Source of the DNA: Lycium barbarum
Taxonomy: Eukaryota > Streptophyta > Magnoliopsida > Solanales > Solanaceae
DNA length: 64,000 bases
Direction: 5' to 3'
NCBI RefSeq assembly: GCF_019175385.1
Contig: NC_083338.1
Location: 95,997,777-96,061,776 of the forward strand
Positions 6,003 through 55,700 of this stretch are shown here, one piece after another. The notes beneath the pieces are model-generated. The model was given only the letters and a program-made list of their open reading frames with translations. It had not been told where the DNA came from and searched no databases. The position numbers were made by a program, and so were the translations under genes. How positions within the stretch are numbered: position 1 is the first letter of the stretch; each line of letters opens with the position of its first letter.

Positions 6003-6039
<37 letters not shown>

Positions 6040-12631: not shown

Positions 12632-12682
<51 letters not shown>

Positions 12683-14109
12683 ATACATATAGCATGAAAG
12701 ACTCATGAAAGACATACTGAAGATTACTCTAGATACGAAGATCTCTAGAAGTCATGAACATGGATATAAGGAATCAAGGGTACGATGAACCCTGTACCAT
12801 CTAAGAGTAGAGTCTTTGGAACTCGCTCGCCTACTTGTTCGTTCAAATAATAAGGATCATGCCAAAAGAATAAAAGGGACAGCCTTAACATACCTTGGGG
12901 TCTACCTAATGTCTGATGCGTACTTCCCGAGCTTGTAACACTACAACCAAGATAACACGAATTACAATTAGGCCATATACATCCTTTACTACCCATTCCA
13001 AGTACGTATGAAACTTAACGAAATTCGGGCAGCATTTCTCTTATAATTCTTACTCCTATCCAACCCCCAAACATTGCACAACACACAAAACATCATAAAA
13101 AATAACAGTAACAATACACAGCAACATAAACAAGTAGAAATCTCTCCAAAATTCCAATCGAAACAGCCTTCAAGCCAACCACATCAACAAGCTAGTTTAG
13201 GTCCTTCATATCATGTTTTCCTTTACTTTAAACTAAGGAATTCCTTCACATTTAACATATCTCAATACTTTCATATCCAAATATAATCAAATCCAAGCCA
13301 AAACATCTCCCAAAACAACCCCTAATCTTAGTTTGACTCAATTAACTCACCGCTTCCATAGCTATATTTCCTTCACTTTAAATCACTAAAACTCTTGGTA
13401 ATCAACTTAATAGCAAAGATAAGAATAGTATACATACCTTAAAGGGGCTGGAATTCCAAGAACCAAACTCCAAATCCAACTCCTAAGCTTAAAAACTTCA
13501 ATAAAAACCTTAGGAACAACTTTCCCTTCACTAGCTCGGGTTTTCGGGCTCGGATCCTACTTGGATGATAAAGAAAGGTTGGGAGAGGGTTGATGAGTAT
13601 TAGGGAGAGTTTAGGGTCTGTTGATGTGGGTTAAAATGAAAAAAAAATCACGAATTAGATGCATATATACATCAGCTGCACCGCCTGAAAATCGACGTGT
13701 CGTCAATGTGCATCGACGGATCATCGACACTTCGACGGCCCATATCTTCCAGTGTCGATGTGCGAATTCAGATATTCTAATTGCGTAGGAAAGTAGACTC
13801 GCTGAACTTATGTATGCATAGGTTATGGGTTCCGTAACTCCTTGTATTCGAGGAGATATGCCTCCCCAAAATTGACCCAAAATTTATGTCCGGAATTCTA
13901 CCGAATTTTCTTAAAATTTCAACAAACTTAATTTCTTCGATGCGCTTAACATCCAACCTTCCCGATACTTACTAAACATGATACCAAGCTCTCATGTATG
14001 ATGAATGAGCATTAATAATTCCTTATGACCTTGATGACAACCTCGCCTTTTAAGTCTTCGTCAACTAACTCATGACGAAACTTTACATATAAAAGTATGG
14101 GGTGTAACA
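11721..14109 (-). repeat. LTR, 5' copy of the minus-strand gypsy element
   Basis: 2389 bp and homologous throughout to 5097-7452. It contains a longer (TA)n at about 12638-12672, the CAGTAC hairpin at 12208-12228 and the CGGGACAGGGCCCCG block at 12021-12035. It ends with GGGTGTAACA next to the TTTGT duplication. The isoleucine/tyrosine-repeat frame near 12.45-12.68 kb is only the microsatellite. Confidence 0.9.
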
Positions 14110-14276
14110 TTTGTCACTTATGATTTTAAAGGTTGATCCCCAACACATTTTGACCAAGCATTCGTTTTTTTCCCTTCTCTTTTATCATCAAATAAGAAAT
14201 TGATTCATAATTAGTTGAATTAAAATTTACATATTCAGCATGAACAAGGAGTACTTTATGTTATAATATTTTATAG

Positions 14277-25055: not shown

Positions 25056-25059
25056 AAAG

Positions 25060-30270: not shown

Positions 30271-32575
30271 TGTTACACCTTGGAAAATTCTGCATTGTTT
30301 GTATTATGAGTAAACTAACATAAGATCAAAGTGGACATGAAGTCCTTACAAGTTTAAGGAGGGTATAAAATAATTCTAAGTTTGTACCTTAAGTTTTTGG
30401 AGTCAAATGAATCGGTTGAAGTAAGTTCGTTGAAGGATTGGAATTTGAGTCATGTTTTGGGAAGAATTCATAACATTTACATTATACATTTCTTAGTATT
30501 ACCTTGATAGGGATTTATAGGGCTCTTTATATGGTTAATGAAGTTTTATACAAGTGACAAGAAGGTTCCATAAGGATTGGAGGTTAAACGAATCGAAAAG
30601 AACGCATTTTCGCGAAAATCGGAGTTTGTGGACCAGTTTGCGGCCGCAAACTGGGTTTGCTGTGCAGAAAACTGGCTGCAAACTTCCCAAATTGGCTGGA
30701 ATCACTTCCCAACATCCTCCCTAAGGATAGGAGGGGATATGCGGCCGCATACTCAGTATGCTGAGCCGCATCTCCACCGCAAATTAAAGCGGGGGGCATT
30801 TTTAAAACCTTTTTAAGTCCCAAGAGATCCCATTTCCATATCCACCTCCCAAATTATTCCCCCACATTATAAGAGAGTTCTTGAAGGTTCTACAACATTT
30901 CACAACTTTCCACACCATCAAAAGAGAAGATCAAACACTAAAACCTCAAGATAATCCATGAAAGATGATTGTTCTTGCTTCTCTTCAAAGTTGTGATTTA
31001 CTTAGTCTTGGAAGGAGTTCAGTAAGGAGAATATCTTCTATTATAAGGTATGTTATCCATATTATTTACATGATTGATTTGATTTAGAGGTTTAGCAAGT
31101 CTTGGAGAGGAAAGAATCATAGTAAAGAAGTCATAAAGTGTTGAATTGAAGTTGATAACTATGAGGTGATTTTGAAAGGAGATGTTGGATTGATTTAAGA
31201 TTAATTTGAATATAATTCCTTGACTATGGTATTGTTGATATTATTATTGTTGTTTGGGAGTTGTTTTGGAATTTGGTGAAAGTCGATAAAATAGGGGAAG
31301 TGCTTCCCAAATTCCGCTAGCTCGTTAATTACACTAGTTTGAACTTAAGAGTGTTTTCAAGACTTAACCTTAGTATGAATCCTCTTGAATGTAAATTTGC
31401 GAGCTTGGAAGGAGAAAAATTAAGTAGTTAAGGAGACGTAAAGGTATGCTAAGGCTAACCCTTTCTTTCTTAAGGCATGATCCCAGTGTCGCGAACTTAT
31501 ACATGATATTCATAATGTCTTCCATGATGACTCCATTCCTAGAAGTACTAAAGCTTATAGTTCTGGATGCTCTTATGATATTATTGATCTTGTTCCTCAT
31601 ATTTGATATCATCTTATGATAGTTGACCTTAATGAGAAGATATACTGATAATGATGACTCCATAATGGTAATCGGAGGTTCACCGACTTCGTGTCACTCC
31701 AATGGAGTTGTAATGTTTCCTTTGGATTCTCATTCATGCTTTATATATATAAATGTATTTTCTCACACAGAGTCGCGCTATAGTCGGCCGGGTATGACAC
31801 CTATTGTGCACACCACTGCAGTTGGGTACGGATAACACCAAACCTTATTATGGTCGGGTATGGATAACACTGAGCCTTGTTATGGTCGGGTACGGGTGAC
31901 ACCGAGCCTATATTGGCTGGGTATAGTATCATTATATATGTAGGTATGGATTGTTTTCTTTGGAGAAAGGTTAGGTATGCATGACAGTCGCCTTAAGAGG
32001 TATTATGAGGTATAAATTGATCTCTTTATCTCATGTTATCTTCATATTCTCATTATGCTGTTATTCATGCCTTACATACTCAGTACATTATTCGTACTGA
32101 CGTCTTTTTGTTTTTGGATGCTGCGTTCATGCCGGCCGATAGACAGGGAGACGAACCAGATCCCTAGGCTGCTTCTTCAGTGATTGTACAGGAGCGCTCC
32201 ATTTGTTTCGGAGCTGCAGATTGGGTGGTACTGTTCTTTTGTTTACATAAATGGGCATGGCGGGGTCAGGTCCCGTCTTTATGGTGTTATGCACTTCTTG
32301 TAGAGGCTCGTAGACAGATGTTTAGATTTTTTGTAACCTCATCGGTTCATGTTTTGTATATCATTTTAGCAGCCTTGTCGACTTGTACATATGGGCATAG
32401 GTTATGGTGTTTTACATAGACATGCATATATCAATTGAAATGGGGTCTATTTCAGATTATGGTATTCATGAGTTATTCTTGTGGCCCATCTAGATGTGAC
32501 TATGAGATGTAGTAGAGAAGTGCTCGGTAGGTTAACTCCGGGTGCCCGTCATGGCCCTCCGGTTGGGTCGTGAAA
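30271..32575 (+). repeat. 3' LTR of the decayed gypsy element
   Basis: 2305 bp. It has an intact CAGTAC hairpin at 32080-32100, a three-unit minisatellite near 31823-31925, and one palindrome arm mutated relative to the 5' LTR. The final CA is changed to AA. Confidence 0.95.
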
Positions 32576-35433
32576 ACTACTTAGTTCTGTAACCAACATA
32601 GGACCTTAGAACAAATATGCCAAACTTTGAATACTATTTCTAACCCTTTACACATGCAGGGTTCCTTCAGCTAGTTGAAAAAGACACAGAGTGAACAACC
32701 ATGGTTAAGTTAAGAGATCTCGTGCCATAAGGAGGATGAAACTGTTAACTAGTTGGCAGGTCTTATGGTAAATGCATATTAACACAGATCCAGAATGGTA
32801 TCAGATAGGCAAAGAAACATACAAACAACTTATAAATCATGTCACTTAAGTGTTTTAGAGGTCAAATAGGCAAGTTTCGGGATCAAATCCCTCTATGCAG
32901 ATCCGTACTTCATTACCATTTCTCATATATATAAGCCTATGATGCTATTAACACATGAAAAATGCCATTAAGAGTAATAGAGCATACTTACAGACTTAAA
33001 GTAGACTCAAACAAAGCAGTGATATTGAGCATCCTTTCAACAATAGAGGTATTTAACAGGTTTAAAAAGGTTATAGTCACAGCCCAACCTAAAGAACCAA
33101 CTTAATATATCATACTTAGCACCGTTTTTCATGTATATTAAGTTCTAATGTCGACAAACTCAAAATCCAAACTTAGAACACTCTTATTTGACCAACTGAT
33201 AACCCCCTTAAGCATTTTTAACACATAAGAGCATTTAACATGACTTTCAATTAAGTCTAGACTGCCTAGATGTCATTTTAAACTAACACCTGAGCATACA
33301 TAATCTTAACATAGCTAAAAACATGCTCATATATTGCCTTCCATGATTAATAGACCGACAGTGTGTCAATCATGCAAACAACGGGCAAACAAGTATAACT
33401 AATCTACTCCAAATTAATACATATATCTAACAACAAGATAAACATGCTTTACTCATTTACCAACTGACAAAACTTTAAGCCTAATCTCAAACCGAACAAG
33501 GATTTCTCTTAAAACTAAACTGAACAGGGCTAAATAATACATTATGCTTAAAAGATCGCCAAGATTAACTAGATGGTTTTCTTAACTAATTAAGGCGGAC
33601 CTACACTACAGCTAAACAGGTATTAACATGCTTTAGTAGTTAAAAGTCAGTCTAAGCTAAACATATATTAACTTAAGATAGACTAAAACTAGACAGTATC
33701 AGTACACAAATCATAATGTAAACTCATAAACCAACTAACATTTATACTAAGCATGATTAAGCTAAATCAAACACATAGAGCACAATTAAGCAATTAAAGA
33801 CCTAAACTAATACATAACTAACCAAAACAAACTAGAACAGACCACATAAACACTTAAATAATTGCTAAAAAATAACAAAAGGAAAGTAAATTACCTTTTT
33901 TGTGTGCAGCCAAATGTCGAGAATGAATTTTGAAGATCCTTTTTCTTCTCCACCTAGAGCTCAGCCACAAACACAAACAGAAAAGAAAATTTTAAAACTT
34001 AACTCTCTCAAATAGTTAAGGATTTCAGCTATTTGCTAAACCCTAAGTAATTCGAGTGTTTTTTAATATGTATGATATATTCGGTGTCTGTTAAATTGTG
34101 AATTGAAGGTTCTTTGTATAGAACCCCAAAATCTCAAAACCCTAATCGAAATTCGATGTGGGACTTGGCAAATTCTGGGAATTGTTCTTTCAAAACCACA
34201 TTCAACGACTAGGATTCAGATAGATAAACATATTAAGGGTCAGATTTGATCCAAAATTGATCAATCCATTCGGTTCTTTATGAACCAATGGGCTTTGAGT
34301 ATTCAAAATCACATACAACCAAAATAATTAAAGGTTTTCAGTCATTTGATCGTTGATTTTGCAGAAAAGTAGAAGAGAGAGGGTGGTCTTATAGTGTTTG
34401 GTCGCACCACGGTGGAGAGAAGGAGCTTTAATTCATGTTTTGCCTAAATTGACCATACAAGGCTTGTAATATAGCAAAGCGCGTGAAAACCCTTCCATTC
34501 TCGGCGTTGTGACGAGGAGATAGAGATGGAGCAGTGAGACATCATTAGGCTTTCTCAACCCTTTTGCCAAAAATGGCAAAATGAAGACTTAGGGGTCTGT
34601 TTGGTGGCTTTTAAGCCGATGGGCCGGGTCTGTCCTTAATGCACTGGGCTCAGCCAGAATTAAAAGAAAAAGAAAGGGGGGCCTTTTGTATATACACACA
34701 TATACACAATATACATGTATATATGTGTATATGGAAAGGGCACAATGTTGTTTTAATAAATGGCCAAATTTAAGAAAGTGAATTGATTTAGACCCCTCAA
34801 TTATGGCCAACACAATTAATTAACCATTTAATCAAATTAATTGACATGGATAATTATGTAAAGAAGTTAAACTCTCAATCAAGACCTCAATTGATTTTAA
34901 ATCATGAAATTGGTTATTTCAATTATAGCCATATTTGACTAAAAATTGATTATTTCAATTGTAGCCGCAATTAATCACATAATAAGCAATTTTATAAATG
35001 TAACCACAATTAAATATTTAATTAATTATGATTAATCTAAAAATTGCACAAATGCCAATTGATTACACAGAGATTAAAACATGAGAGGTAAAATAATTAT
35101 TTATTTAATTAATCAAGTTTCTTGAATTGAACGGAGTAAAATACTTGCTCATTGAATCTTCAATAATTTTCACAATTAATTGGATAATTGTTTTAAATTG
35201 TTTTCTGATTTAATTTGGCAAATGATTTGTATAAATAGTAAAAATATGTAAATTATTCTCAAATGACTTATGACACGCTTTTGAAACTATTTTGCCCAAT
35301 GAAATTGCAAAATATTATCATAATAATTTTGCGAAGTCAATTTGATTTATAAAAATATATGTTTCACTTCGTTTTAGATTCAAGAACCCTGGGTAATTAA
35401 AATAAATTACTGGAGGTCAAAAATTAGGTGTCA
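32576..35433 (-). mobile_element. Ogre/Tat-like LTR, proximal part
   Basis: Continuation of 19806-22713. The plus-strand end at 35433 (GGTCAAAAATTAGGTGTCA) is the reverse of the TGACACC start typical of this LTR type. No gene is seen. Mixed AC/AT microsatellite sequence lies at about 34690-34735. Confidence 0.5.
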
Positions 35434-39807: not shown

Positions 39808-41038
39808 ACTTTCCCGTAAGCTGGAGTTTTAGATATAAGGAGCATTGAACTCCAGTGAACATACAAGGAGTTTTATGTCCGTCCTATACTCTGTTGGAGT
39901 TTTACATTTAAAAGTTTGAATATAACTTTGTATTGGAGATTCATCTACAATAAGTTTTCGACCTTCAGCACACCAATACATGTGCTAGAGTTTCACTTAT
40001 AAAAACTTCGAATTCCTTCATAATTTATTGTAGTTTTTCATTTTTTAACAAGAGGTATTTTATTCAAATTTTAGTCTGAATAAACTTATCATTTTGCAAT
40101 AACATTTCAAGCAATGGCTAAACATTAAAAAATAGCTCAATAACTAATCATCCCACACAATTTTCTCTCAGTGGGCCCTAAATAATAAGGCCCAATGAAT
40201 GCTCCAATTTACTCCTAATAGAATGGAATAAGTACATAGGGTAGCCGAATTTGGAGCAAAAGTTATGCCCTATGTTTATAAAATTTTACAAGTCTATGCA
40301 CTTCAAAATAATTTCAGACATACGAGATTTAAAGTATAAAAGTTCATGTCCTAAGTTGGCAGGTCACATACATGAGTGAAGTTCAAACATTTATGTCTAA
40401 TGTTAGTAAATGTTTTCCCCTAAATAAATTGTTCTTCGATTTTCAACAATTCAACACGTGATTGATTCAATGCCCAAATCTGTTCTGAATGAGCTCATAT
40501 TTGAAACGAAAGTTCCATATATCATCAAGAATGAACCAATATTGAATTCTCTCTTTTTTATTAGTATTATTTTCGACCGATCCAGTATCCGCATTCATGA
40601 TCGACTAAATTCATATTTGGCCCTGAAAAGTCTCACATTAGGAGGTATAACGCTAACAAAAGCGACTCCATATCCAGAGCTTGAACTTGAGACCTCGAGT
40701 TAAGGATGAAGGAGTACTTATCGCTTCACCACAAATCCTTCTTGGTCATTAAATTCTCAAAACAACAACAAATCTAACAGAACCCCTTTTGCAACAGTGT
40801 TGATCTGTCAACATTTTCAAGCGTTTCCTATAACACCCACTTCATTTGAGCACTTTTCATAGTTGAAATTCAAAACCACTTCTTCAAAGCATTAAACTTA
40901 ATTACGATAGATACGAAAAACACTATTGTACAACAACTAAGAGTATAGGAGTTCACTTATACCCACTTTCATATTGAAATTGAAGACCACTTGCCTTCCA
41001 AGTATTATAATTAATTTATATTGATTTGAAAAATATTA
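39808..41038. other. Unassigned intergenic DNA
   Basis: No gene recognised. Repeated GGAGTTTTA phrases occur at 39830-39910. Two ~60-bp imperfect direct repeats around TTGAAATTSAARACCACTT lie near 40862 and 40980. The 81-codon frame at 40458-40703 has no known domain. Confidence 0.5.
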
Positions 41039-41270
41039 CTCCCTCCGTCCCAATTTACGTGATCTAGTTTGATTAGGAGCGGAGTTTAAGAAAGAAAAGA
41101 AGACTTTTGAAACTTGTGATCTAAAACAAGTCATAGATATTTGTGTGGCTATAAATCATTTTATTAAGGTTAAAAGGGGAAGTTTAAAGTTAAATTATTT
41201 CTAAATATATAAATGTATCATTCTTTATGGGACAGCCTAAAAAGAAAAGTGTATCACATAAATGTTTTAT
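41039..41270. mobile_element. Stowaway-type MITE, one end lost
   Basis: Starts CTCCCTCCGTCCCAATTTA right after TA, the Stowaway (Tc1/mariner-type) inverted end and target. The body (AAAACAAGTCATAGATATTTGTGTGGCTATAAATC, then TTTATGGGACAGCCTAAAAAG and TATCACATAAATG) fits the family, but the expected closing GGGACGGAGGGAG is missing. Confidence 0.8.
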
Positions 41271-41527
41271 CTTAACAATGCCTTTATACTTTTGAATAAT
41301 GAATAGCTGGAATAGCTAATCATTTGAGGAGGTAGTTTTTAGATATTTTTTTTTCATATTTCAGTTCTTCTCATGAATGTTTATAAAATTTTATTTATAC
41401 TAAAGTTTCATCAAGGAAAAAAAGATGAAAGTTGGCTAATTGAAAAGATAATAGAATTGGAGAAACGTATTTTCGTAAGCAAAATAAGCATAAAAAGTTA
41501 CGAAAATAATGTAAGCAGGAAATGCAC

Positions 41528-41579
41528 TGCCCTCGTTGAGAGTTGAACTCAAGAGCTCCCACTTACTAAACGGGTGCTC
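41528..41579 (-). tRNA. tRNA-Thr(AGT), 3' part (gene split by retrotransposon)
   Basis: Joined with 52562-52583 on the minus strand this gives a 74-nt tRNA. This part holds the end of the D-stem, the anticodon arm with loop TTAGTAA (anticodon AGT, Thr), the variable loop, the T arm (stem TTGAG/CTCAA, loop TTCAACT), the 3' acceptor strand CGAGGGC and discriminator A. The acceptor pairs 7 of 7 (two G-U). U8, A14, G18-G19, A21, U33, purine 26, G53-C61 and T54-T55-C56 are all present. A TTTT on the minus strand (41503-41506) about 22 nt downstream could be the Pol III terminator. The break lies inside the A-box, so transcription as a tRNA should be abolished. Confidence 0.9.
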
Positions 41580-41852
41580 TGTTAGGCCCCGTGTTTTCGT
41601 ACAATTGGAAATCGAGAAATAATTATGACTAGGGTGTTAGAAGGATATAAATTAATTTGTGAGAATATGACTATGTGGGTTATGGAATCTTTTATGCTAA
41701 GACCTCGGGGAAGGCCGAGGATAAATTTGGAATTTCGGAAATTAGTTTCGGGAGTTATAAAACGGGACTTTTTAAGCATTGGGCCAAGAAACCAAAATTT
41801 TAATTTGCAAGCCCAAAGGAAGAGAGGGGGCCGGCCAAGCCCAATTTTAAAA

Positions 41853-41877
41853 GGGTCATGTGCTATGCACATGACCC
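41853..41877 (+). promoter_or_regulatory. Perfect palindrome in LTR (11-bp stem, 3-nt loop)
   Basis: Stem GGGTCATGTGC with its exact reverse complement around TAT; repeated at 49928-49952. The diverged solo LTR at 36503-39572 keeps a related palindrome at the equivalent place, so structure seems maintained. Role unknown. Confidence 0.7.
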
Positions 41878-43921
41878 CAAAAGGATATATACTAGAAAGA
41901 CTTATCAATTATAGATCAAAAATTCATAAATCAAGAACACAAAGAAAAGAGAGGTTCGGCCGTGACTTGAGAGGAGAAGAGAGAAAAAATTTCCAAGCTT
42001 GTGTGTGATCCAAAAATCTTGGTTTCTACATATTTGTGAAGTACTCAAGACGCTCTCCGACGTGGTATAATTTGTTTGGCACGGGGACGACGTTTTCGAC
42101 AAGTCGGGGTTTCAAGAAAAGGTGAGAATTCTTACCCTTTTATGTTATAGAATTGATGTGAATGTGTTAAGCATTGGAAGTAGATGGAGATCCCGTAATT
42201 TTAATGTAAATAGAAAGTCGTGGGTGTGTGTTTGTAGTGGGTTTGGCCGAGAGCCATAGAAGGAAAAATTGGTGTGAATTGATCTTGGTTAAGTTGGTCT
42301 AATGTGTTGTTGTGATCCTTATATCATAAATGATCGATTGTTGAATTAAATTGGCGGTGGAAAACGAATTTGGATGTTATCGGAAAGTGTATATCCTTGG
42401 TATCTTTATGTATATCAATGTATATTTTGGGTACTAGAGACTTTAGATATGACTTTTTAATGATATGGGTGAATTTGGAATGAAACGACGTTAGTTAGAA
42501 TGTTCGTCGTGAAATTTGGATATTTTGAAGAACTATGGAAATTTATTGATTTTGATGCAATTTCGTGTATGGCTTAGATTGAATTTGGAATGTGTTTGAC
42601 TAGTGTCGGATGGGTAAATGAATACAATTATGTGAATATAGAATTGGGATTTTGAAAGTTTGAATGGAAGTTGCCAACTTTAGAAATCATGTAGAACTTT
42701 AAAGCTAGAATGGTTTGATTGTTGTTTGGTTTGGTTGTTGATGTGTGGGCTGTTGTTGTTGTTGTATTTTGAGCCGAGCTAAGTCTCGGGGATGTTAGAT
42801 TTATAGGGGAAGTGCTGCCGAAATTTCGGTAGGCAAAAATTGGAGTTAAAGGCATTTTTAAGCCTAAGAATCTCAATTGGTAACTTTGACCATTTGCAGA
42901 TTTTTGACGAAACGGGACTGGACTTTTGGAAGGGCTTACGACGTCTGTGAGGTATGTAAAGCTTCCCAATTCTTTATTTGGCATATCTTAGTGTGTTAGT
43001 TGAATATGAGACCTTCCGGAGCAGTTCTGCTCCTCGAAACCCGATCCACAGGAAAGTTACTATTCATTCAATTCGATTGAAGCCTAAAGGCTCCCTTTTG
43101 GCTAGAATGCCATTATTCGTCCGAAACCTATCGAAATGTGGTCGGGTAACCTAGAAATGATTATGTATGACCCTTGGCATATAACTGCTCATAAAAATAT
43201 GTTCGCCACCTCACTTCGACTCGAGGTGGGTCCGCTACCCCCAAAATGCCCGAATTGCCCTTCGGGCCACTTTGAGAACAGAGTTGAACGTACCCCTTCT
43301 GATCTTTGGAACATCCTTCCACGGGGTATGTTTGGACTATTCGATGCACTAATCCATGTCTTGAACTATATAGACCATTTTGGAATCGTTTTGCAAAATG
43401 AAACCTTATGTCGACTAAGTATTCGACTATTTTGTAATAGGATATGATTTATGAGTTTACTTTGTTTTGAAACACTATTTTGAAATACGATTTGCATTTG
43501 TTTGCTCACGACTCCGCTCGTGCCTTATTATGACTCCGTTCACCGGTTCCCGGGCCGGTTTTGATTGGTGCGCTGTATGATAAATTCGGCTGTATGCTGT
43601 GTTACGGTTCCCGAGGCTTCGCCATAGGGCCCGGTTCCGTTTGGAGTTATGCTGTGATATGGCTCGGGATGCGATACGCTCACCGATGATTATGATTATG
43701 TTCGGGGATGTACGGAGATTTGAAACCTTCTGGTGTTATGCTGTGTGTGGCGTCAGCGTTGGAGTGGCGACCACGTTCCTAAGCGTTTGCATGATTTCAC
43801 TTGCATAGTATATACGTACATGATTTCGATACAGATTTTGACATACCAGTTTGTACCCCACTTTGACATTTGATTTGCTTTCGGTTTTGATCTATAATTC
43901 TGTACTCCGTGCTTTACATAC

Positions 43922-43942
43922 TCAGTACATATTTCGTACTGA
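43922..43942 (+). promoter_or_regulatory. Conserved LTR hairpin TCAGTAC-N7-GTACTGA
   Basis: Found in all ten LTR copies that retain this region. It is followed here by a second GGGG-rich block and TTATGCCCGCAGGT. It lies ~540 nt before the LTR end. I suggest a role at the R/U5 side (RNA 3' end or packaging), by position only. Confidence 0.65.
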
Positions 43943-44484
43943 CCCCCTTTCTTCGGGGGCTGCGTTTTATGCCCGCAGGTGCAGATATCGGTGATCCTCC
44001 GCAGTAGGCTTCACTTCTTGCTATTCCGGAGTACTCTTATCCGATCTGGAGTCCACTTTTGGTACAGACTCTTTTGTTTTGTATATATTTGGTATGTCTG
44101 ACTATTTGGGTACGGCGGGGCCCTGTCTCGCCACATGTCTTTGTTTTGAGTTCGTAGAGGCCTGTAGTCATATATGTGGGGCGAGGGTCCTATGTGTTTA
44201 TTGTCTGATTTTGCTTTCGGGTCTTAAAGCGGTCTGTTTGATATGATGGCCCCAAATGGCCCTTTTGTATATATTTGTATTTTGACCGGCGATGTCTATT
44301 CCGCCGCTTTGTTTGAGTTTGATTTGATATGACCGCTTAAGACATATTTTCGATATAAATTATGTTTGATATAACTTCTTGAAAATTCTGAAATGAGTTT
44401 GGATTCGGAAATAAATATGCGATTTGGTCTGGGTACCCAGGTAGGGTGCCAGTCGCGGCCCACGGGGCTGGGTCGTGACAAAAG

Positions 44485-44496
44485 TGGTATCAGAGC
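44485..44496 (+). other. Primer-binding site (TGGTATCAGAGC)
   Basis: Starts four bases after the 5' LTR. It is complementary to the 3' end of initiator tRNA-Met, the primer for minus-strand DNA synthesis. Confidence 0.95.
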
Positions 44497-44683
44497 AGTC
44501 TGTCCTCGGAATGTCTACAGGCCGTGTCTCGTAGAGCCTTGTTTATCGATGTGTTGTGCACCACATCTATAAACGGGAAGCTACAGGGCATTTAGGATGT
44601 CACTTTCTTTGGAATCTTAGATCGTGCGATAGAGCTGTGCTATTAGGGTGATTTTGACCTGACTCGCCTTTGTGTTTGCAGTG

Positions 44684-45136
44684 ATGCCTCCGAAGAAGGC
44701 AACGGCGGCCCAGAAGGGCAAGGCGAGGATTGGAGAGACTAGCCAGGCACAGCGAGCTACCCGGGCTCGTGTATATGATTTGCCTGAGGATGTGCCACAG
44801 TCTGAGGGGTCTGCTACACCCCCACTAGTACAGCCTGGAGTAGGACCTTCAGCAGCTCCAGAGGTCCGTGTACCCGCACCTGAGACTCCAGCTCCTCAGC
44901 CAGGGGCGGAGGATAGGACCCTGAGGGAGGCTGTACAGCTGTTGACTACACTGGTAGCAGGACAGGCTCGCAGGCGCGGGCGGAGGGACGACGATGATGA
45001 TGACAGGCGGGACAGCCTGAGAGTTCGGGAGTTTTGTTATGTGGCCCTCCTGAGTTCTTCGGGTCTAAGCCCGACGAGGACCCCCACGACTTTATTCGGG
45101 GGATGCGACGCTCACTGGACTTGGTCAGGGCTTTAG
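44684..45136 (+). pseudogene. gag N-terminus of the young chromovirus, ends in frameshift
   Basis: ATG at 44684 opens MPPKKATAAQKGKAR; an upstream GTG-led reading adds four residues without support. A proline-rich linker, then LREAVQLLTTLVAGQ and an arginine/aspartate stretch ([11 protein letters not shown]) lead to RVREF at about 45030. There the sequence GTTTTG changes the reading: the downstream gag continues in the next frame from 45034. The last ~35 codons of this frame to 45136 are therefore out of register. The same N-terminus (AAQKGK) is recognisable at 25.25 kb and, in reverse, at 11.53 kb. A one-base loss in a T-run, or a sequencing error there, explains the break. Confidence 0.85.
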
Positions 45137-48000
45137 AGACCGAGTCAGTTGAGCTGGCTTCGCACCGGCTTCGAGATGTGGCTACCCACTGGTACGAGAC
45201 TTGGGAGCTGTCTAGAGGAGAGGGTGCCCCTCCAGCCACTTGGGATCAGTTTGTGACAGCATTCACCCGCCACTTTTTGCCCCCAGAGTTACGGCGGGCA
45301 CGGGCTGATCGATTCTTACGTCTGCAGCAGAGGGGTCGGAGTGTTCGCGAGTATAACCTTGAGTTTGATTCTCTGGCCCGATATGCACCGGCCGTGGTAG
45401 CAGATATGTCCGATCGGATGCACAGATATGTTATGGGATTGGACCGGTATTTGGTTGATAGTTGTATGGCAGTGTCATTGCAGGCAGACATGGACATTTC
45501 CCGGCTTCAGGCCTATGCGATGGGTATGGAGGACCGTCGCAGATCTGATCCTGCTAGCAGAGATCGAGACAGGAGGCCGCCCAAGAGGGCTAGATCCGTG
45601 GGTTATTCAGGGGATTCTCGAGGCGGACAGCCTCAGCAGCAGCAGCAGTCTGACAGATATTTTCCTCCCTCCGGCCGGGGTACTCAGTCAGGTAGCCGGA
45701 GATTCGATAGTACAGGACCGTCTGGGGCCGGTCAGAGCTCCAGAGTGGCAGGTTCACAGGTACCCAGGGGTCCCATCCAGGCCAGACCACCCAGGCCCCG
45801 GTGTCCTCATTGCGGGAAGTCACATCCCGAGGAGTGTTACCGAGCGACGAGAGCTTGTTTTTCTTGTGGCGGTCAGGGCCACTTTATGAGAGATTGTCCA
45901 TTGGCTAGCGGTTCTGGTAGTGCTGCTCAGCAGACAGGGTCAGCCGCCGGTTCTTCTTCTGCTCCATCAGTTGCACGCCCTGGAGGGCGAGGTATTTCAG
46001 CACCGGCAGGACGCGGTCGAGGCCGCGGTGGCACTTCAGGTTCTAGCGGTCCCTCGAACCGCATATATGCTTTGGCCAGCCGCCAAGATCAGGAGGCTTC
46101 GCCAAACGTTGTCACAGGTACATTGCTGGTTTTCTCCAGATCTGTATATGCATTGATTGACCCTGGTTCTACTTTATCGTATATTTCCCCGCTCGTTGCT
46201 AGTAAAATTGGGATAGTGTCTGAGCCTATAGAACCGTTTGAGGTAGCTACGCCAATTGGGGATTTTATTGTAGCAAGACAGATTTATAAGGATTGTTCTG
46301 TGACCATTTATGATCGTAGCACTAAGGCTGACTTGATAGAGTTAGACATGCTGGAGTTTGACGTCATTATGGGCATGGACTGGTTGTCTTCCTGTTATGC
46401 TAATGTCGACTGCCAGAAAAAGGTAGTCCGTTTTCAGTTTCCAGGAGAACCAGTCATAGAGTGGTTCGGATCTACAGCATCGCCGAGGGGTAAGTTTATT
46501 TCATACCTCAAGGCTAAGAAGATGATCCAGAAGGGTTATATCTATCATTTGGTTCGTGTGCACGATACTGCCGCGGAGGTACCTACCCTTCAGTCTGTTC
46601 CGGTCGTCAGCGAGTTTCCAGATGTTTTTCCTGACGAGCTTCCTGGCCTTCCGCCTGAGCGGGAGATTGATTTTTCTATTGAGTTGATGCCGGATACACA
46701 GCCTATATCTATTCCTCCGTACAGGATGGCACCAGCTGAGTTGAAGGAGTTGAAGGAGCAGCTGAAAGATTTGCTGGATAAGGGTTTTATCAGGCCCAGT
46801 ACATCACCCTGGGGGGCGCCGGTATTGTTTGTCAGGAAGAAAGATGGGTCATTGCGGATGTGTATCGACTACCGGCAGCTGAATAAGGTGACTATTAAGA
46901 ACAAATATCCCCTCCCCCGGATTGATGATTTGTTTGACCAGCTGCAGGGTGCTAGACATTTTTCAAAGATAGATCTGCGTTCTGGTTACCATCAGGTGCG
47001 AGTACGGGAGTCAGATATCCCGAAGACTGCTTTCAGGACTCGGTACGGGCATTATGAGTTCAGAGTTATGTCTTTCGGGCTGACTAATGCTCCAGCAGTA
47101 TTTATGGATCTGATGAACCGGGTATTTCGGCCTTTCCTGGATATGTTTGTTATTGTGTTTATTGACGATATTCTGGTTTACTCGCGATCAGTCGAGGAGC
47201 ATTCAGATCATTTGAGGACGGTACTTGGCATCCTCCGTCAGCAGAAGTTATATGCTAAATTCTCTAAGTGTGAGTTCTGGTTGACTTCTGTGGCATTCTT
47301 GGGCCATATTGTCGGCGCAGATGGTATTCGGGTTGACACGCAGAAGATTGAGGTTGTGCAGAATTGGCCCAGGCCTACTACACCGACAGAGGTGCGTAGT
47401 TTTCTTGGATTGGCTGGGTATTACCGCAGGTTCGTGGAGGATTTCTCTTCTATTTCAGCACCACTGACGAGGCTTACCCAGAAAGCAGCAAAATTCCAGT
47501 GGACAGATGCTTGCGAGCGCAGCTTTCAGATGCTGAAGGAGAGATTGATTACAGCACCAGTTTTGGCTCTTCCAGAGGGATCTGACGGGTATGTTGTCTA
47601 TTGTGACGCCTCTGGTATTGGGATAGGATGTGTATTGATGCAGCACGGTCGAGTCATAGCCTATGCTTCCCGACAGCTCAGACCGCATGAGAAGAACTAT
47701 CCCACTCATGATCTTGAGTTGGCCGCGGTGATTCATGCTTTGAAGATTTGGCGGCATTATTTATATGGGGTCCATGTTGATATCTATACGGACCATAAGA
47801 GTCTCCAGTATATTTTTAGGCAGAAGGAACTAAATTTGCGGCAGCGGAGATGGCTTGAGTTACTAAATGATTACGATGTTGATATTTTGTACCATCCGGG
47901 GAAAGCCAATGTGGTAGCTGATGCGCTTAGCCGCAAGTCCGTGGGCAGTCTGGCTGATGTTCCATCTGATAAGAGAGATTTGGTTCGTGATATTCATTAG
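45034..48000 (+). CDS. gag-protease-RT-RNase H polyprotein of the young chromovirus
   Basis: 988 codons after the frameshift. Gag core at residues ~40-140 ([33 protein letters not shown]). CCHC knuckle C275/C278/H283/C288, with a CPHCGKSH motif just before it. Aspartic protease DPGS with catalytic D376. RT from ~560 with FVIVFIDD (D711, D712). RNase H with YCDAS (D858). The frame has no start codon of its own (it opens on TTG) and depends on the frame upstream. It stops at TAG 47998-48000, which lies at the RNase H/integrase junction where the 22.7 kb copy has a glutamine codon. All catalytic motifs are intact. The product would form particles and make cDNA but lacks integrase. Confidence 0.95.
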
Positions 48001-49518
48001 CTGGCCAGCCTCGGAGTTCGTTTGGTGGATTCTGGAGATTCTGGGATTTCTGTTCGTCCAGTTGCTGAGTCATCTATTATTCAGGAGGTAAAGCAGCGCC
48101 AGTTTGAGGATCCTCTTTTGATTCAGTACAAAGATGTGGCCCTTAGTAAATCAAAGACTCAGTTTGAGATCTCGCCTGACGGAGTATTATTATATGACGG
48201 CAGATTCTGTGTACCGGACGTTGCGGGCTTACGGCGGCAGATTATGGGCGAGGCCCATAATGCACGATATTCTGTCCATCCTGGTTCCACTAAAATGTAC
48301 CGGGACCTCAGGTGTTTGTATTGGTGGGACGGCATGAAGAAAGATATTGCTGAGTTTGTTAGTCAGTGCCCGAACTGCCAGCAAGTTAAGATCGAGCATC
48401 AGAAGCCCGGTGGATTATTGCAGGAGATGGAAATTCCAGCCTGGAAATGGGAGATGATTAATATGGATTTCGTTGTTGGATTACCGCGCACTCCACGCAG
48501 GTACGACTCTATCTGGGTTGTTGTTGACAGGCTGACGAAATCAGCCCATTTCCTTCCGGTTCGGACTATTTATTCGGCTGAAGACTATGCCAGATTGTAT
48601 ATCAGAGAGATAGTCAGACTTCACGGAGTCCCTATATCTATTATTACTGACCGAGGTACCCAGTTTACAGCAAATTTCTGGAGGTCATTTCAGGAGGGAT
48701 TAGGGACTCAGGTGAGTCTCAGTACAGCTTTTCACCCCCAGTCCGACGGGCAGGCCGAGCGCACTATTCAGACGCTCGAAGATATGTTGCGGGCCTGCGT
48801 TATTGATTTCAGGGGCAGCTGGGATGATCATTTGCCGCTTATTGAGTTTGCCTATAATAACAGTTATCACTCCAGCATTCAGATGGCTCCGTACGAGGCC
48901 CTTTATGGCAGGAGATGCAGGTCTCCTATTGGCTGGTTTGACGTGGGCGAGACTAAGTTGATTGGCCCAGACGTGATCCAGGAGGCTGTAGATAAGGTAA
49001 AGCTTATTCGAGAACGATTATTGGCTGCTCAGAGTCGACAGAAAGCTTATGCAGATAGACGCCGTCGACCGTTAGAGTTCCGGATTGGCGACTGGGTATT
49101 CCTGAAGGTGTCGCCCATGAAGGGTGTCATGAGATTCGGTAAAAAGGGTAAGTTGAGCCCCCGGTACATTGGACCGTATCAGATCGTGCGAAAGATAGGC
49201 GAGGTCGCCTACGAGCTAGACTTGCCATCCGATTTGGAGTCCGTGCACCCGGTGTTTCATGTGTCTATGTTGCGGAAATGTATTGGTGACCCTTCCAGGA
49301 TATTCCCAGTAGATGATCTCCAGGTGACGGAGCAGTTATCTTATGACGAGCAGCCGGTATCTATTCTGGATCGTCAGGTGAGGAGATTGCGCACTAAGGA
49401 AGTGCCTTCGGTTAAGGTTCTATGGCGAAATAACAACCGGGAAGAGATGACTTGGGAGGCGGAGGATGAGATGAAGAAGAGATTCCCCCATTTATTCCCT
49501 ACGCCTCCTGTAATCTAG
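48001..49518 (+). CDS. Integrase plus chromodomain-like tail of the young chromovirus
   Basis: Continues in the same frame directly after TAG 48000; the first ATG is at 48022 (numbering from it, 498 aa). Zinc domain H79/H86...C116/C119. Catalytic D149, D210 and E246 with the canonical 35-residue D-E gap. GPY/F-like C-terminal region (KGKLSPRYIGPYQI). A chromodomain-like segment at ~438-490 (SILDRQVRRLRTKEVPSVKVLW, then EEMTWEAEDEMKKRFPHLF). Chromodomains steer chromovirus integration to marked chromatin; the aromatic cage here is not canonical, as in the Tekay/Del group. No initiation signal is seen, so expression separate from gag-pol is doubtful. Confidence 0.92.
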   Translation: MASLGVRLVDSGDSGISVRPVAESSIIQEVKQRQFEDPLLIQYKDVALSKSKTQFEISPDGVLLYDGRFCVPDVAGLRRQIMGEAHNARYSVHPGSTKMYRDLRCLYWWDGMKKDIAEFVSQCPNCQQVKIEHQKPGGLLQEMEIPAWKWEMINMDFVVGLPRTPRRYDSIWVVVDRLTKSAHFLPVRTIYSAEDYARLYIREIVRLHGVPISIITDRGTQFTANFWRSFQEGLGTQVSLSTAFHPQSDGQAERTIQTLEDMLRACVIDFRGSWDDHLPLIEFAYNNSYHSSIQMAPYEALYGRRCRSPIGWFDVGETKLIGPDVIQEAVDKVKLIRERLLAAQSRQKAYADRRRRPLEFRIGDWVFLKVSPMKGVMRFGKKGKLSPRYIGPYQIVRKIGEVAYELDLPSDLESVHPVFHVSMLRKCIGDPSRIFPVDDLQVTEQLSYDEQPVSILDRQVRRLRTKEVPSVKVLWRNNNREEMTWEAEDEMKKRFPHLFPTPPVI

Positions 49519-49618
49519 ACTTTTGTATTTGTTGTACCAATGAACGGACGGACCATGTGTGTCATTTATATAAAAATGGTTTTCCCGTTATGCTTGTGAG
49601 CCTTCATAAGATTTGTTT

Positions 49619-49654
49619 AACATTCGGGGACGAATGTTCTTAAGGGGGGGAGAA
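49619..49654 (+). other. PPT-adjacent hairpin and polypurine tract
   Basis: AACATTCG-GGGA-CGAATGTT (49619-49638) followed by CTT and AAGGGGGGGAGAA up to the 3' LTR. The tract primes plus-strand DNA synthesis. The hairpin is shared with two other subfamilies in the window. Confidence 0.85.
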
Positions 49655-52556
49655 TGTTAGGCCCCGTGTTTTCGTACAATTGGAAATCGAGAAATAATTA
49701 TGACTAGGGTGTTAGAAGGATATAAATTAATTTGTGAGAATATGACTATGTGGGTTATGGAATCTTTTATGCTAAGACCTCGGGGAAGGCCGAGGATAAA
49801 TTTGGAATTTCGGAAATTAGTTTCGGGAGTTATAAAACGGGACTTTTTAAGCATTGGGCCAAGAAACCAAAATTTTAATTTGCAAGCCCAAAGGAAGAGA
49901 GGGGGCCGGCCAAGCCCAATTTTAAAAGGGTCATGTGCTATGCACATGACCCCAAAAGGATATATACTAGAAAGACTTATCAATTATAGATCAAAAATTC
50001 ATAAATCAAGAACACAAAGAAAAGAGAGGTTCGGCCGTGACTTGAGAGGAGAAGAGAGAAAAAATTTCCAAGCTTGTGTGTGATCCAAAAATCTTGGTTT
50101 CTACATATTTGTGAAGTACTCAAGACGCTCTCCGACGTGGTATAATTTGTTTGGCACGGGGACGACGTTTTCGACAAGTCGGGGTTTCAAGAAAAGGTGA
50201 GAATTCTTACCCTTTTATGTTATAGAATTGATGTGAATGTGTTAAGCATTGGAAGTAGATGGAGATCCCGTAATTTTAATGTAAATAGAAAGTCGTGGGT
50301 GTGTGTTTGTAGTGGGTTTGGCCGAGAGCCATAGAAGGAAAAATTGGTGTGAATTGATCTTGGTTAAGTTGGTCTAATGTGTTGTTGTGATCCTTATATC
50401 ATAAATGATCGATTGTTGAATTAAATTGGCGGTGGAAAACGAATTTGGATGTTATCGGAAAGTGTATATCCTTGGTATCTTTATGTATATCAATGTATAT
50501 TTTGGGTACTAGAGACTTTAGATATGACTTTTTAATGATATGGGTGAATTTGGAATGAAACGACGTTAGTTAGAATGTTCGTCGTGAAATTTGGATATTT
50601 TGAAGAACTATGGAAATTTATTGATTTTGATGCAATTTCGTGTATGGCTTAGATTGAATTTGGAATGTGTTTGACTAGTGTCGGATGGGTAAATGAATAC
50701 AATTATGTGAATATAGAATTGGGATTTTGAAAGTTTGAATGGAAGTTGCCAACTTTAGAAATCATGTAGAACTTTAAAGCTAGAATGGTTTGATTGTTGT
50801 TTGGTTTGGTTGTTGATGTGTGGGCTGTTGTTGTTGTTGTATTTTGAGCCGAGCTAAGTCTCGGGGATGTTAGATTTATAGGGGAAGTGCTGCCGAAATT
50901 TCGGTAGGCAAAAATTGGAGTTAAAGGCATTTTTAAGCCTAAGAATCTCAATTGGTAACTTTGACCATTTGCAGATTTTTGACGAAACGGGACTGGACTT
51001 TTGGAAGGGCTTACGACGTCTGTGAGGTATGTAAAGCTTCCCAATTCTTTATTTGGCATATCTTAGTGTGTTAGTTGAATATGAGACCTTCCGGAGCAGT
51101 TCTGCTCCTCGAAACCCGATCCACAGGAAAGTTACTATTCATTCAATTCGATTGAAGCCTAAAGGCTCCCTTTTGGCTAGAATGCCATTATTCGTCCGAA
51201 ACCTATCGAAATGTGGTCGGGTAACCTAGAAATGATTATGTATGACCCTTGGCATATAACTGCTCATAAAAATATGTTCGCCACCTCACTTCGACTCGAG
51301 GTGGGTCCGCTACCCCCAAAATGCCCGAATTGCCCTTCGGGTCATCTTTGAGAACAGAGTTGAACGTACCCCTTCTGATCTTTGGAACATCCTTCCACGG
51401 GGTATGTTTGGACTATTCGATGCACTAATCCATGTCTTGAACTATATAGACCATTTTGGAATCGTTTTGCAAAATGAAACCTTATGTCGACTAAGTATTC
51501 GACTATTTTGTAATAGGATATGATTTATGAGTTTACTTTGTTTTGAAACACTATTTTGAAATACGATTTGCATTTGTTTGCTCACGACTCCGCTCGTGCC
51601 TTATTATGACTCCGTTCACCGGTTCCCGGGCCGGTTTTGATTGGTGCGCTGTATGATAAATTCGGCTGTATGCTGTGTTACGGTTCCCGAGGCTTCGCCA
51701 TAGGGCCCGGTTCCGTTTGGAGTTATGCTGTGATATGGCTCGGGATGCGATACGCTCACCGATGATTATGATTATGTTCGGGGATGTACGGAGATTTGAA
51801 ACCTTCTGGTGTTATGCTGTGTGTGGCGTCAGCGTTGGAGTGGCGACCACGTTCCTAAGCGTTTGCATGATTTCACTTGCATAGTATATACGTACATGAT
51901 TTCGATACAGATTTTGACATACCAGTTTGTACCCCACTTTGACATTTGATTTGCTTTCGGTTTTGATCTATAATTCTGTACTCCGTGCTTTACATACTCA
52001 GTACATATTTCATACTGACCCCCTTTCTTCGGGGGCTGCGTTTTATGCCCGCAGGTGCAGATATCGGTGATCCTCCGCAGTAGGCTTCACTTCTTGCTAT
52101 TCCGGAGTACTCTTATCCGATCTGGAGTCCACTTTTGGTACAGACTCTTTTGTTTTGTATATATTTGGTATGTCTGACTATTTGGGTACGGCGGGGCCCT
52201 GTCTCGCCACATGTCTTTGTTTTGAGTTCGTAGAGGCCTGTAGTCATATATGTGGGGCGAGGGTCCTATGTGTTTATTGTCTGATTTTGCTTTCGGGTCT
52301 TAAAGCGGTCTGTTTGATATGATGGCCCCAAATGGCCCTTTTGTATATATTTGTATTTTGACCGGCGATGTCTATTCCGCCGCTTTGTTTGAGTTTGATT
52401 TGATATGACCGCTTAAGACATATTTTCGATATAAATTATGTTTGATATAACTTCTTGAAAATTCTGAAATGAGTTTGGATTCGGAAATAAATATGCGATT
52501 TGGTCTGGGTACCCAGGTAGGGTGCCAGTCGCGGCCCACGGGGCTGGGTCGTGACA
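49655..52556 (+). repeat. 3' LTR of the young chromovirus
   Basis: 2902 bp and nearly identical to the 5' LTR. The G-to-A change at 52012 falls in the stem of the CAGTAC hairpin (51998-52018). Confidence 0.97.
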
Positions 52557-52583
52557 TGCTCTAACCAACTAAGCTACAAGAGC
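52557..52583 (-). tRNA. tRNA-Thr(AGT), 5' part (with target duplication)
   Basis: Minus strand from 52583: acceptor GCTCTTG, T8-A9, D-arm GCTTAGTTGGTTA..., then the element. TGCTC at 52557-52561 is the duplicated target and belongs to the A-box/D-stem (GAGCA on the minus strand). With 41528-41579 it completes the cloverleaf. Upstream flank (52584 onward) shows no other gene. Confidence 0.9.
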
Positions 52584-52734
52584 TTGATGTATACTTAGCT
52601 GGTCTCTATCTATACAACTTAACAACATAGAATGATGATAAAGCAGTAAGTCGCTCACATGTTTTGCACATAAATTTAAATCAATCACTTTTACAGGTCG
52701 ATGTCTTCTTTTTTCCTTTTCGCCAGTTGCCTAA

Positions 52735-55700
52735 GTAGGCATTTGGCCATGAAAACCAAATATTTTTCACATTATGTAACGACCCATTTGGTCGTTATTG
52801 CATTTTATCCTTTTTGCCCACGTTGACTCGTCCCTAAGCTTTGTTAGTACTATTTTGATCTACGGGGACCGGTGGTACAGTTCCCTCGGCATAATTTTGG
52901 GTTTTGGAATGACTTTTAGAAAATTTGGTCTTAAAGCGAAAACCGTTTGACTCGAAGTTGACTTTTGGGTAAATGTGTCCGTAATCGAATTCCGACAGTT
53001 CCATTAGGTCTAGAGGGTGATTTATAACTTAGTGGTATCATTGGTTTGGTTCCCTAAGGGTTCGGGTGTGATTTGGGTCATTGGTTGAGAAACTGGTTAA
53101 GTTAGAATTGGAGTTGACTACGGCCAACATCGGGTCAAGATGAACCCGTGTCAATGTTTTGAAAGTTCCAATAAGTTTGTATGACTATTTTGGACATGTC
53201 CACAAATTTTGGTAAGATTCCGATTAGTTTTGGATAAGTTTGGGTTGTACGGTGATTGTTTTCGATTTCGACATCGATTTGAGCATAAAGGGTACCATAT
53301 TGAGCAAACGGCCTTTGATTCGTGTTTCGACTAAACCATTATATCCGTATCGTAATTTTGGAGCCATAGCAACTGAAATCATCAAGTTTCAACTTTGTAT
53401 GAGGGAATTATAGTCATTTTACAAAGAATTGGGTTGCCAGATTTTTCAAATTAATTACGAAATTGCCACTGAATTCGTATTTAAAAATCTGCACTTTTCC
53501 AAATATTAAAACCAACATACATTACAAGGTCAAATGGAGTGATTCAAAAGCCTAACTTGACTGGAATTTTCCAAGGAATCCATTGGATGCATCAAAATTT
53601 GGGATCGTTTGGCACTAGAAACGAGGCAGAACAGCTGGGCATTTTTGGCTATTAATGTTGTTGGAGTTTCTGTCATCTTGAAAGTTTGAGTTTGGAGAAT
53701 TCAAGGATGTTCTTCAAGTTTCTTCCATGGGGTAAGGTCTAAATCATAATCAAAGTATTTTCCTTTGATTCATTCCCTTGGTTTAAGCTTTAATCCATGA
53801 TTTCTAAAGTAGGAAATTGGAATTTTTCACGAAAGAAGGTTTAATGGGTCTTTCTTGAGAAGTTCATAAAATTGGTTAGACTTCCTAAGTTACTTTGAGT
53901 AACGAAATTTATTGGGTTTATGCTAGATTATGATGTATCTAAGGTTGTTAATCATAGACCCTCCATTATTAGTGTTGAATTCTTGAATTTAAGAGTTAGG
54001 GTTTATATCCAAAATTGAGGATTTTGCTTGGATTTCGAAATTGGATGAATCCTTGAGTTAATTTAGCAATTATTTGATGGGTTTTGATCACTTAGTGTTT
54101 AATTGGATAATTTACCCCCGAATTTCCCGTTTTGCCCTTGTGGGCCCCGTTTCCCCAAATTCTAGGGTTGGTTTTTGACCCAATTTGAATCATAGCAATA
54201 TAGGTATCGATCTTCATGATTTTTAATCTAGATTTAGAATATGACTAGACTTTATTGATCTTGAGGCTCAAAGGAAATAAAAAGGCTATGGTGTGATTGT
54301 TGATGATATTTGTTGTTCGGCCTTCCAGGCCTATGGAGAGACTTCGTTTAGCGAAACATATATTTAGACGATATTGTTGGAGAAAGCATGTAAACCTTCG
54401 GGTATGAAGTTGGGTTGGATATTGTCTTAGGTTGGGTCCTGTTGTGTGATTGGGGCTAGCCATTCCGTTATGTTGTGACTTGATTTGTTCTATTGTTGTT
54501 GGCTTGATTCCACATGGTGATATAGATATTGGAGACTATTGACATATTTTTTTCATGATATTGTAGTATCTTACTTGTTGATGTTTGATACGAGGATAGT
54601 ATTCTATATGGCTTGTGTAGCCTTTTCATGATATTATTTGTGTGCCCTGTGTGGTACTGTTGGGATTGAATTGGTTGTTGATATTGCATTGAATCGTATT
54701 CATACTCATTTCTATGATACATTGATATTGCATGGTTATGGTACTGATGATGATAAATGAGAGAGTGTAGCCTCCGTGGTCTTTGCCGGAGGGCGCGAAA
54801 GAGAGATGAAATTCTGTGATCTGAGGTCATGTATCGGAGCAAAATGAGTGTTGATAAGATATCTTGTTGTTGTCATCTGCATACTTGAATCATTCATTGA
54901 ACACTATGTTGTTTGACAGGGGGTGACGATGTGGCTGTTGTTTTTGAAATACTTGAGAGGTTTTATACTAATTGCACGACCATTCTATGCTATGTGATAC
55001 GGGATGGTCGGTCGGCATGAAGGGTGGAAAGGTCATCTCTAGGCTATGTGCTACGGAGCGACATAATACATGGACTTCGCGGGTCCCCCATGGGTTGTGC
55101 TACCGAAACGTCGATACTTCCGTCCGGAGTACATGTGTACAACATTGCATTGCATTTGCATTCATACATCATTGCATTGCATTGTATTATAGTTTATATT
55201 ATGATGATCTGGTGATTTAATTGTGTTGTTTGGTTTCGGATTGGATAAATTGAGACTTGGCACACTTGGGATTAGATGTTTCAACCTGGGTGATAACGTG
55301 TACATGGTTCTGACTTGTGTTTGACTCATACTTGTTAATTTATCTGCTTATCTTACTTTATTGTCTGAATTATGTTAGCTATACTTAGTCGGCCGATGAT
55401 ACCTACTAGTACTGTGGTTTGTACTGGCCTGAACTTGCTGCATTCTTTTATGAATGCAGAATTCTAGGTTGGATCTACTTCTGTTTCTCGTGGTTGATAG
55501 TCGCTCTGAGATTTGCTTAGAGTCCATAGGGTGAGCACGAGACGTCCGCCGCCTTGAAGACTCTTCTTTATTTATGTCTTATTTTCTATTCCGAGACATA
55601 CTCAGACTTGATGTATTATTGATATTCCAGACTTGTAGATTCTAGTTAGAAGCTCTTGTATGGATTAGATCGGACTCTGGGGTGTAGTTCCTTATTTCCG

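What the first reader, a model, noticed from the sequence alone, without database searches (positions are those of the whole stretch)
41528..52583. A canonical tRNA-Thr(AGT) gene interrupted in its A-box by a very young 11-kb chromovirus
Seen: removing the element and one copy of TGCTC gives a 74-nt minus-strand cloverleaf with all pairing stems, anticodon AGT and the conserved tRNA positions; a TTTT terminator follows. The insertion cuts the D-arm/A-box. Known: tRNA-gene targeting is a Ty1/Ty3 habit in yeast (upstream of the gene), not an expected chromovirus choice, and hits inside the gene body are unusual. Inference: one copy of a multicopy tRNA gene was inactivated recently, so an empty allele may still exist in the species.
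Basis: partly seen in the sequence, partly recalled or inferred. Interest (0 to 1): 0.75.

Follow-up and report, generated by a model that had tools for sequence, protein, structure and literature searches.

The report
Young retrotransposon splits diverged tRNA-Thr gene
A very young 11-kb plant retrotransposon landed, apparently by chance, inside one already diverged copy of a threonine tRNA gene that has many other copies in the same genome: a clean but ordinary insertion.

Summary
The split gene is real. Window 41580-52556 is a Tekay-like chromovirus with a 5-bp duplication (TGCTC); its LTRs differ by 2 transitions and one 1-nt indel. Joining the flanks gives a 74-nt minus-strand tRNA-Thr(AGT) by ARAGORN, with TATA, CAA, A-box, B-box and T4 signals. 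Three points of the finding need correcting. (1) The A box is not cut: it survives whole on the right side; the break lies in the D-stem 3' strand and puts the B box 11 kb away. (2) The gene is not canonical: it differs at 6 of 74 positions from the form that 7 of 18 genomic relatives share exactly, and scores 114.3 against 121.3. At the LTR divergence only about 0.03 mutations are expected in 74 nt since insertion, so those changes are almost certainly older. (3) No sign of tRNA targeting: of 25 other young family copies examined (19 with both flanks and a TSD), none has a tRNA gene at the site or in the roughly 1-1.5 kb of flank held (default ARAGORN). A few such hits per genome are expected by chance if all retrotransposons are counted. 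No empty allele is in this assembly; other plants could not be searched.

The parts
41528..41579 (-). 3' part of the split tRNA-Thr(AGT) gene (nt 23-74, with anticodon, B box and one TSD copy)
   Evidence: ARAGORN on joined flanks; 100% match of query nt 22-74 at this place in the genome search
41540..41548 (-). B box GTTCAACTC (nt 54-62)
   Evidence: pattern GWTCRANNC in joined site; consensus recalled
41503..41506 (-). T4 run, possible Pol III terminator, starting 22 nt past the tRNA 3' end
41575..41579 (.). left TSD copy TGCTC
41580..44480 (+). 5' LTR, 2901 nt
44485..44496 (+). primer-binding-site sequence TGGTATCAGAGC, 5 nt inside the 5' LTR; the iMet tRNA primer is recalled
   Evidence: sequence
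44684..45136 (+). 150-aa ORF before gag, in another frame than the next ORF; no Pfam match
45103..48000 (+). 965-aa ORF: gag, CCHC zinc knuckle, protease, reverse transcriptase, RNase H; ends at a stop before the integrase
48244..49518 (+). 424-aa ORF: integrase (zinc-binding domain, core just under the Pfam cut-off) and chromodomain (just over the cut-off)
49642..49654 (+). polypurine tract next to the 3' LTR
   Evidence: sequence
49655..52556 (+). 3' LTR, 2902 nt, 99.9% identical to the 5' LTR
52557..52561 (.). right TSD copy TGCTC
52562..52583 (-). 5' part of the split tRNA gene (nt 1-22; with the TSD copy nt 1-27)
52565..52576 (-). A box TAGCTTAGTTGG (nt 8-19), intact
52584..52586 (-). CAA motif at -3
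52611..52614 (-). TATA at -31

Best explanation
A Tekay-like chromovirus inserted recently, without target choice for tRNA genes, into one member of a nuclear tRNA-Thr(AGT) gene family. Shown: complete LTR element, 5-bp TSD, a tRNA restored only when the flanks are joined, and A and B boxes now separated by 11,016 bp instead of 34. Shown by comparison: the hit copy is a diverged member (6 differences from the 7-copy form). Inferred: with the boxes apart TFIIIC cannot bind both and the 3' part has no promoter, so the copy no longer makes a tRNA; the loss is tolerated because at least 16 other places encode full tRNA-Thr(AGT) by ARAGORN. The element's own reading frame is broken at two places, so its proteins may have come from other copies, or the breaks arose during or after insertion.
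For: TSD, LTR pair and ORFs. tRNA only in the joined site. Plant tDNA signals in place: TATA -31, CAA -3, T4 +22. 18 relatives in the genome, 17 scored as tRNA-Thr(AGT). Left flank of 300 nt and first ~200 nt of the right flank match in full only here among the candidates scored (40 of 78, and 40 of 1288). 25 other young family units, 19 with both flanks and perfect 5-bp TSDs: no tRNA, TSDs without a common motif. Three other retrotransposon-like repeats or LTR pairs crowd the same window.
Against: Only 40 of 1740 first-look places were scored and they are the best-matching, youngest ones; 0 of 19 leaves an upper 95% limit of about 18% for the share landing in tRNA genes. Counted on this family alone, 1000 insertions would give only 0.02-0.07 hits in tRNA genes, so the hit is mildly lucky unless all families are counted. 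Expression of the tRNA copy before or after insertion was not testable.
Confidence: 0.9

Rival explanations
1. Targeted integration: the integrase or chromodomain of this family is drawn to Pol III chromatin, and the hit inside the gene is one of many near tRNA genes.
For: A chromovirus group (Skipper-2 of dictyostelids) does target the region downstream of tRNA genes. On this family's numbers alone the hit is improbable at a level of a few per cent.
Against: 0 of 25 other young units with a tRNA at the site or in the flanks at default ARAGORN; the family-wide tRNA-Thr sequence matches only this site among the flanks. The known targeters land beside the gene, not inside it.
Confidence: 0.04
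2. The target was already a tRNA pseudogene, so that nothing functional was lost.
For: 6 differences from the 7-copy form, 4 of them shared with none of the 18 relatives (nt 13, 41, 47, 71); 3 of 6 at CpG sites; no compensatory partner changes, unlike the second type (nt 4/70 and 7/67) in L094-L096 and L098; nt 47 G lost; lowest ARAGORN score of the 18 detected copies (114.3; next 114.5 and 114.7). About 0.03 changes are expected after insertion.
Against: All four stem changes keep a G-U pair (about 1 in 16 if transitions fell at random); anticodon, A box, B box, TATA, CAA and T4 are in place; ARAGORN does not flag it as a pseudogene.
Confidence: 0.45
3. The tRNA-like sequence is the head of a tRNA-derived SINE or a chance cloverleaf.
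For: tRNA-derived SINEs are common in plants (recalled; also PMC11700998 passage).
Against: Outside the 74 nt the 90 nt on each side have no match to the flanks of any of the 18 relatives; the relatives lie at scattered places with differing flanks; 0 of 3000 random joins give a tRNA; 3' end without tail repeats and with a terminator.
Confidence: 0.02

Closest known systems
Tekay (Del) clade chromoviruses, e.g. Bongo1-3 of Beta vulgaris (PMC3605345, passages)
   Same: Ty3/gypsy order gag-PR-RT-RH-INT-chromodomain; LTRs of about 2.6-3.0 kb and about 10-11.6 kb in length; 5-bp TSD; young members (Bongo3 LTR divergence 0.08 in the table's unit)
   Different: this copy sits inside a tRNA gene and has a reading frame broken at two places; no tree was built
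Skipper-2 chromoviruses of dictyostelids (PMC5006619, abstract and passages)
   Same: chromodomain Ty3/gypsy elements associated with tRNA genes
   Different: they cluster about 26-100 bp downstream of tRNA genes as a family habit; here it is a single hit inside the gene and 0 of 25 sister copies repeat it
Ty3, Tj1, DGLT-A (PMC4600332, PMC5006619, passages; Ty3 partly recalled)
   Same: LTR retrotransposons found at tRNA genes
   Different: they land a few to about 33 bp upstream of the gene and leave it working
Dada DNA transposons (PMC3706591, passages)
   Same: insertions inside tRNA genes
   Different: DNA transposons with a fixed target site and 6-7 bp TSD repeated in many copies

Membership tests
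Tekay/Del chromovirus | gag, protease, RT, RNase H, integrase in gypsy order | tested here: met
   Pfam matches in order; integrase core 31.6 bits, just under its cut-off of 32.6, other integrase domains above theirs
Tekay/Del chromovirus | chromodomain at the integrase C terminus | tested here: met
   PF00385 at 25.5 bits, cut-off 25.1
Tekay/Del chromovirus | long LTRs (about 2.6-3 kb) and 5-bp TSD | tested here: met
   2901/2902 nt, TGCTC; ranges from passages of PMC3605345
Tekay/Del chromovirus | place in an RT/INT tree with Tekay | not tested
   no tree built; nearest proteins are plant gypsy integrases up to 89% identical, those named from Solanum and Nicotiana lower (best 120 of 7972 listed)
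nuclear tRNA-Thr(AGT) gene | cloverleaf with anticodon AGT, A and B boxes | tested here: met
   ARAGORN on joined flanks, patterns
nuclear tRNA-Thr(AGT) gene | membership of a gene family in the same genome | tested here: met
   18 other places, 86-94% identical, 17 detected by ARAGORN
nuclear tRNA-Thr(AGT) gene | functional (transcribed, charged) copy before insertion | not testable with these tools
   no RNA data; 6 differences from the common form
tRNA-gene-targeting retrotransposon | repeated insertion at or near tRNA genes | tested here: not met
   0 of 25 other units, 19 with both flanks

The most novel reading that the evidence does not exclude
The seed-plant chromodomain of this Tekay family has a weak attraction to Pol III chromatin, as in Skipper-2, that sends a small share of new copies into or beside tRNA genes, too small to show in 25 sites.
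Probability: 0.03. Interest if true: 0.6.

Novelty: new member of a known kind. Interest (0 to 1): 0.15.

Why it matters
It gives a clean, recent, datable knock-out of one tRNA gene copy in a plant and a possible presence/absence marker. It does not change what is known of where plant chromoviruses land, and it shows that one striking site should be checked against sister copies before targeting is proposed.

Tried and rejected
Rejected: targeting (25 sister units without tRNA); SINE head (no shared flanks); A-box disruption (A box intact); a cloverleaf by chance (0 of 3000 joins). ARAGORN in a lax mode (90% threshold, introns allowed) gave 17 further rows in the flank set (three joins, several flanks) with long supposed introns or low scores; one without intron, tRNA-Lys, lies in element-internal sequence; I treat them as noise, as such rows are usual in that mode, but did not test each.

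Led nowhere: Rfam on 40000-54000 gave only a sub-threshold tRNA match on the left half running into the LTR (19.6 bits, gathering 29), and other sub-threshold matches that look like chance. A count of all tRNA genes in this genome (Rfam RF00005) was asked for six times and never answered. The LTR 3' end search did not complete. Literature searches for retrotransposon insertions inside plant tRNA genes (listings only unless a paper is cited) showed no direct case; that is not proof of absence.
Full report
The observation. The element runs from 41580 to 52556 with LTRs at 41580-44480 and 49655-52556 and TGCTC on both sides. Aligned, the LTRs differ by two transitions and one indel column in 2902. 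With rates recalled from the literature, K = 2/2901 gives about 27 thousand years at 1.3e-8 per site and year, or 49 thousand at 7e-9; the Poisson range is about 3 to 96 and 6 to 178 thousand years. ARAGORN finds no tRNA in the window or in either half alone, and finds tRNA-Thr(AGT), 74 nt, in the joined site. None of 3000 random joins gave one. The coordinates of the finding (41528-52583) are exactly the outer ends of the tRNA.

Where the insertion lies. The A-box match TAGCTTAGTTGG is nt 8-19 and lies wholly in the right part, 52576-52565. The B box is nt 54-62, at 41548-41540. The break is after nt 22 to 27 (the TSD is nt 23-27), in the 3' strand of the D stem. So the A box is not cut; the two boxes, 34 nt apart in the joined gene, are now 11,016 nt apart. 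No B-box pattern was found in the first stretch of LTR that follows the A-box half.

What the tRNA was. The 74-nt joined sequence matches 18 other places in the 1.67-Gb genome (19 of 19 candidates scored, the 19th being the 3' part of this gene itself). No other place has the whole joined sequence at 100%, so no empty allele is in this assembly. ARAGORN calls tRNA-Thr(AGT) in 17 of the 18. Seven (L082-L088) are identical to each other and score 121.3. The window copy scores 114.3, the lowest of the 18 detected, with L098 (114.5) and L093 (114.7) close by. It differs from the seven-copy form at nt 6, 13, 41, 47, 58 and 71. Changes 13, 41, 47 and 71 are in none of the 18; nt 6 is shared with L089 and L092, which carry a partner change at nt 68 that this copy lacks; nt 58 is shared with L081 and L094 (L097 also reads A near there but aligns with a gap). 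The four stem changes (nt 6, 13, 41, 71) all turn a Watson-Crick pair into G-U. Position 47, which I place at position 46 of the standard numbering (recalled), is G in the 18 others and C here. At the LTR divergence about 0.03 changes (upper limit about 0.09) are expected in 74 nt since insertion, so the copy had almost certainly diverged before it was hit. Against a pseudogene stand the plant-type signals: TATA at -31, CAA at -3, T4 at +22. A survey of flowering plants reports TATA motifs for 22-32% and CAA motifs for 78-82% of tRNA genes (PMC11700998, passages). Flanks are not shared with any relative, so it is not part of a repeat. I leave open whether it was still in use.

The element. The internal part has a 150-aa ORF without Pfam match, a 965-aa ORF with gag, zinc knuckle, protease, RT and RNase H in another frame, a stop at 47998, and a 424-aa ORF with integrase and chromodomain. 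It is thus broken at two places although its LTRs are nearly identical. The nearest proteins are unnamed (89%); the named ones near the top include Solanum verrucosum and Nicotiana tomentosiformis (best 120 of 7972 shown). With 12 large contigs of 106 to 172 Mb seen or implied, a plant of the nightshade family is likely; the species is not given by any search.

Targeting. The first 120 nt of the LTR have 1740 first-look candidates, of which 40 were scored, 28 of them at 100%. Besides this element's two LTRs these 38 places form 25 units: 13 pairs and 12 single places. Nineteen units have both genomic flanks and a perfect 5-bp TSD (12 pairs, 7 apparent solo LTRs); six have one genomic flank only. 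With default ARAGORN none of the 25 has a tRNA in the joined site or in the 1.0-1.5 kb of left and about 1.2-1.3 kb of right sequence held, and this site has. The common tRNA-Thr form matches none of those flanks but this one. The TSDs share no motif. Nine of the 13 other pairs were compared over 1.4-1.6 kb of LTR and are 99.6-100% identical, so these are young sites. The 95% upper limit for the share landing in tRNA genes is 18% from 0 of 19.

Chance. Published counts for two Lycium species are 1255 and 1602 tRNAs (PMC8175696, passages). With 500 to 1600 genes of 74 nt in 1.67 Gb, 1000 insertions give 0.02-0.07 hits and 100,000 insertions 2-7. The number of insertions of all families is my assumption. 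So the hit is unlikely for this one family and expected for the genome as a whole.

Compared with what is known. tRNA-targeting LTR retrotransposons land beside the gene: Tj1 5-11 bp upstream, DGLT-A 13-33 bp upstream, and the chromovirus Skipper-2 about 26-100 bp downstream. Insertion inside tRNA genes as a habit is described for Dada DNA transposons. This case shows no habit.

Verdict: a real, young, clean insertion of a known kind, into a diverged copy of a redundant gene; low interest.

Noticed in passing
window 5097-7453 with 11721-14110; 22714-25056 with 30271-32576: Two further pairs of long direct repeats (92% and 90% identical), LTR-like; the second encloses sequence 72% identical to the pol region of the young element, an older relative.
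   Followed up: partly
window about 41030-41263: Repeat ending 36 nt into the searched left flank, with many copies in the genome and a start like a Stowaway MITE (name recalled).
   Followed up: partly
window about 52762 onward: A high-copy repeat begins about 180 nt upstream of the tRNA 5' end (1288 first-look candidates, 40 scored), possibly another LTR starting near 52775; a 36-nt piece of 52734-52769 also lies downstream of the relative tRNA gene L094.
   Followed up: partly
window 44663-49518: The element's coding frame is interrupted twice although its LTRs are 99.9% identical, so young copies of this family may depend on sister copies.
   Followed up: partly
L031/L032, C6 near 61.83 Mb: A family pair whose second LTR is followed by element-internal sequence again, which looks like a tandem LTR-internal-LTR-internal arrangement.
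   Followed up: no
protein P0013: A close relative of the integrase ORF (85%) is filed under a Corynebacterium genome, probably plant contamination.
   Followed up: no
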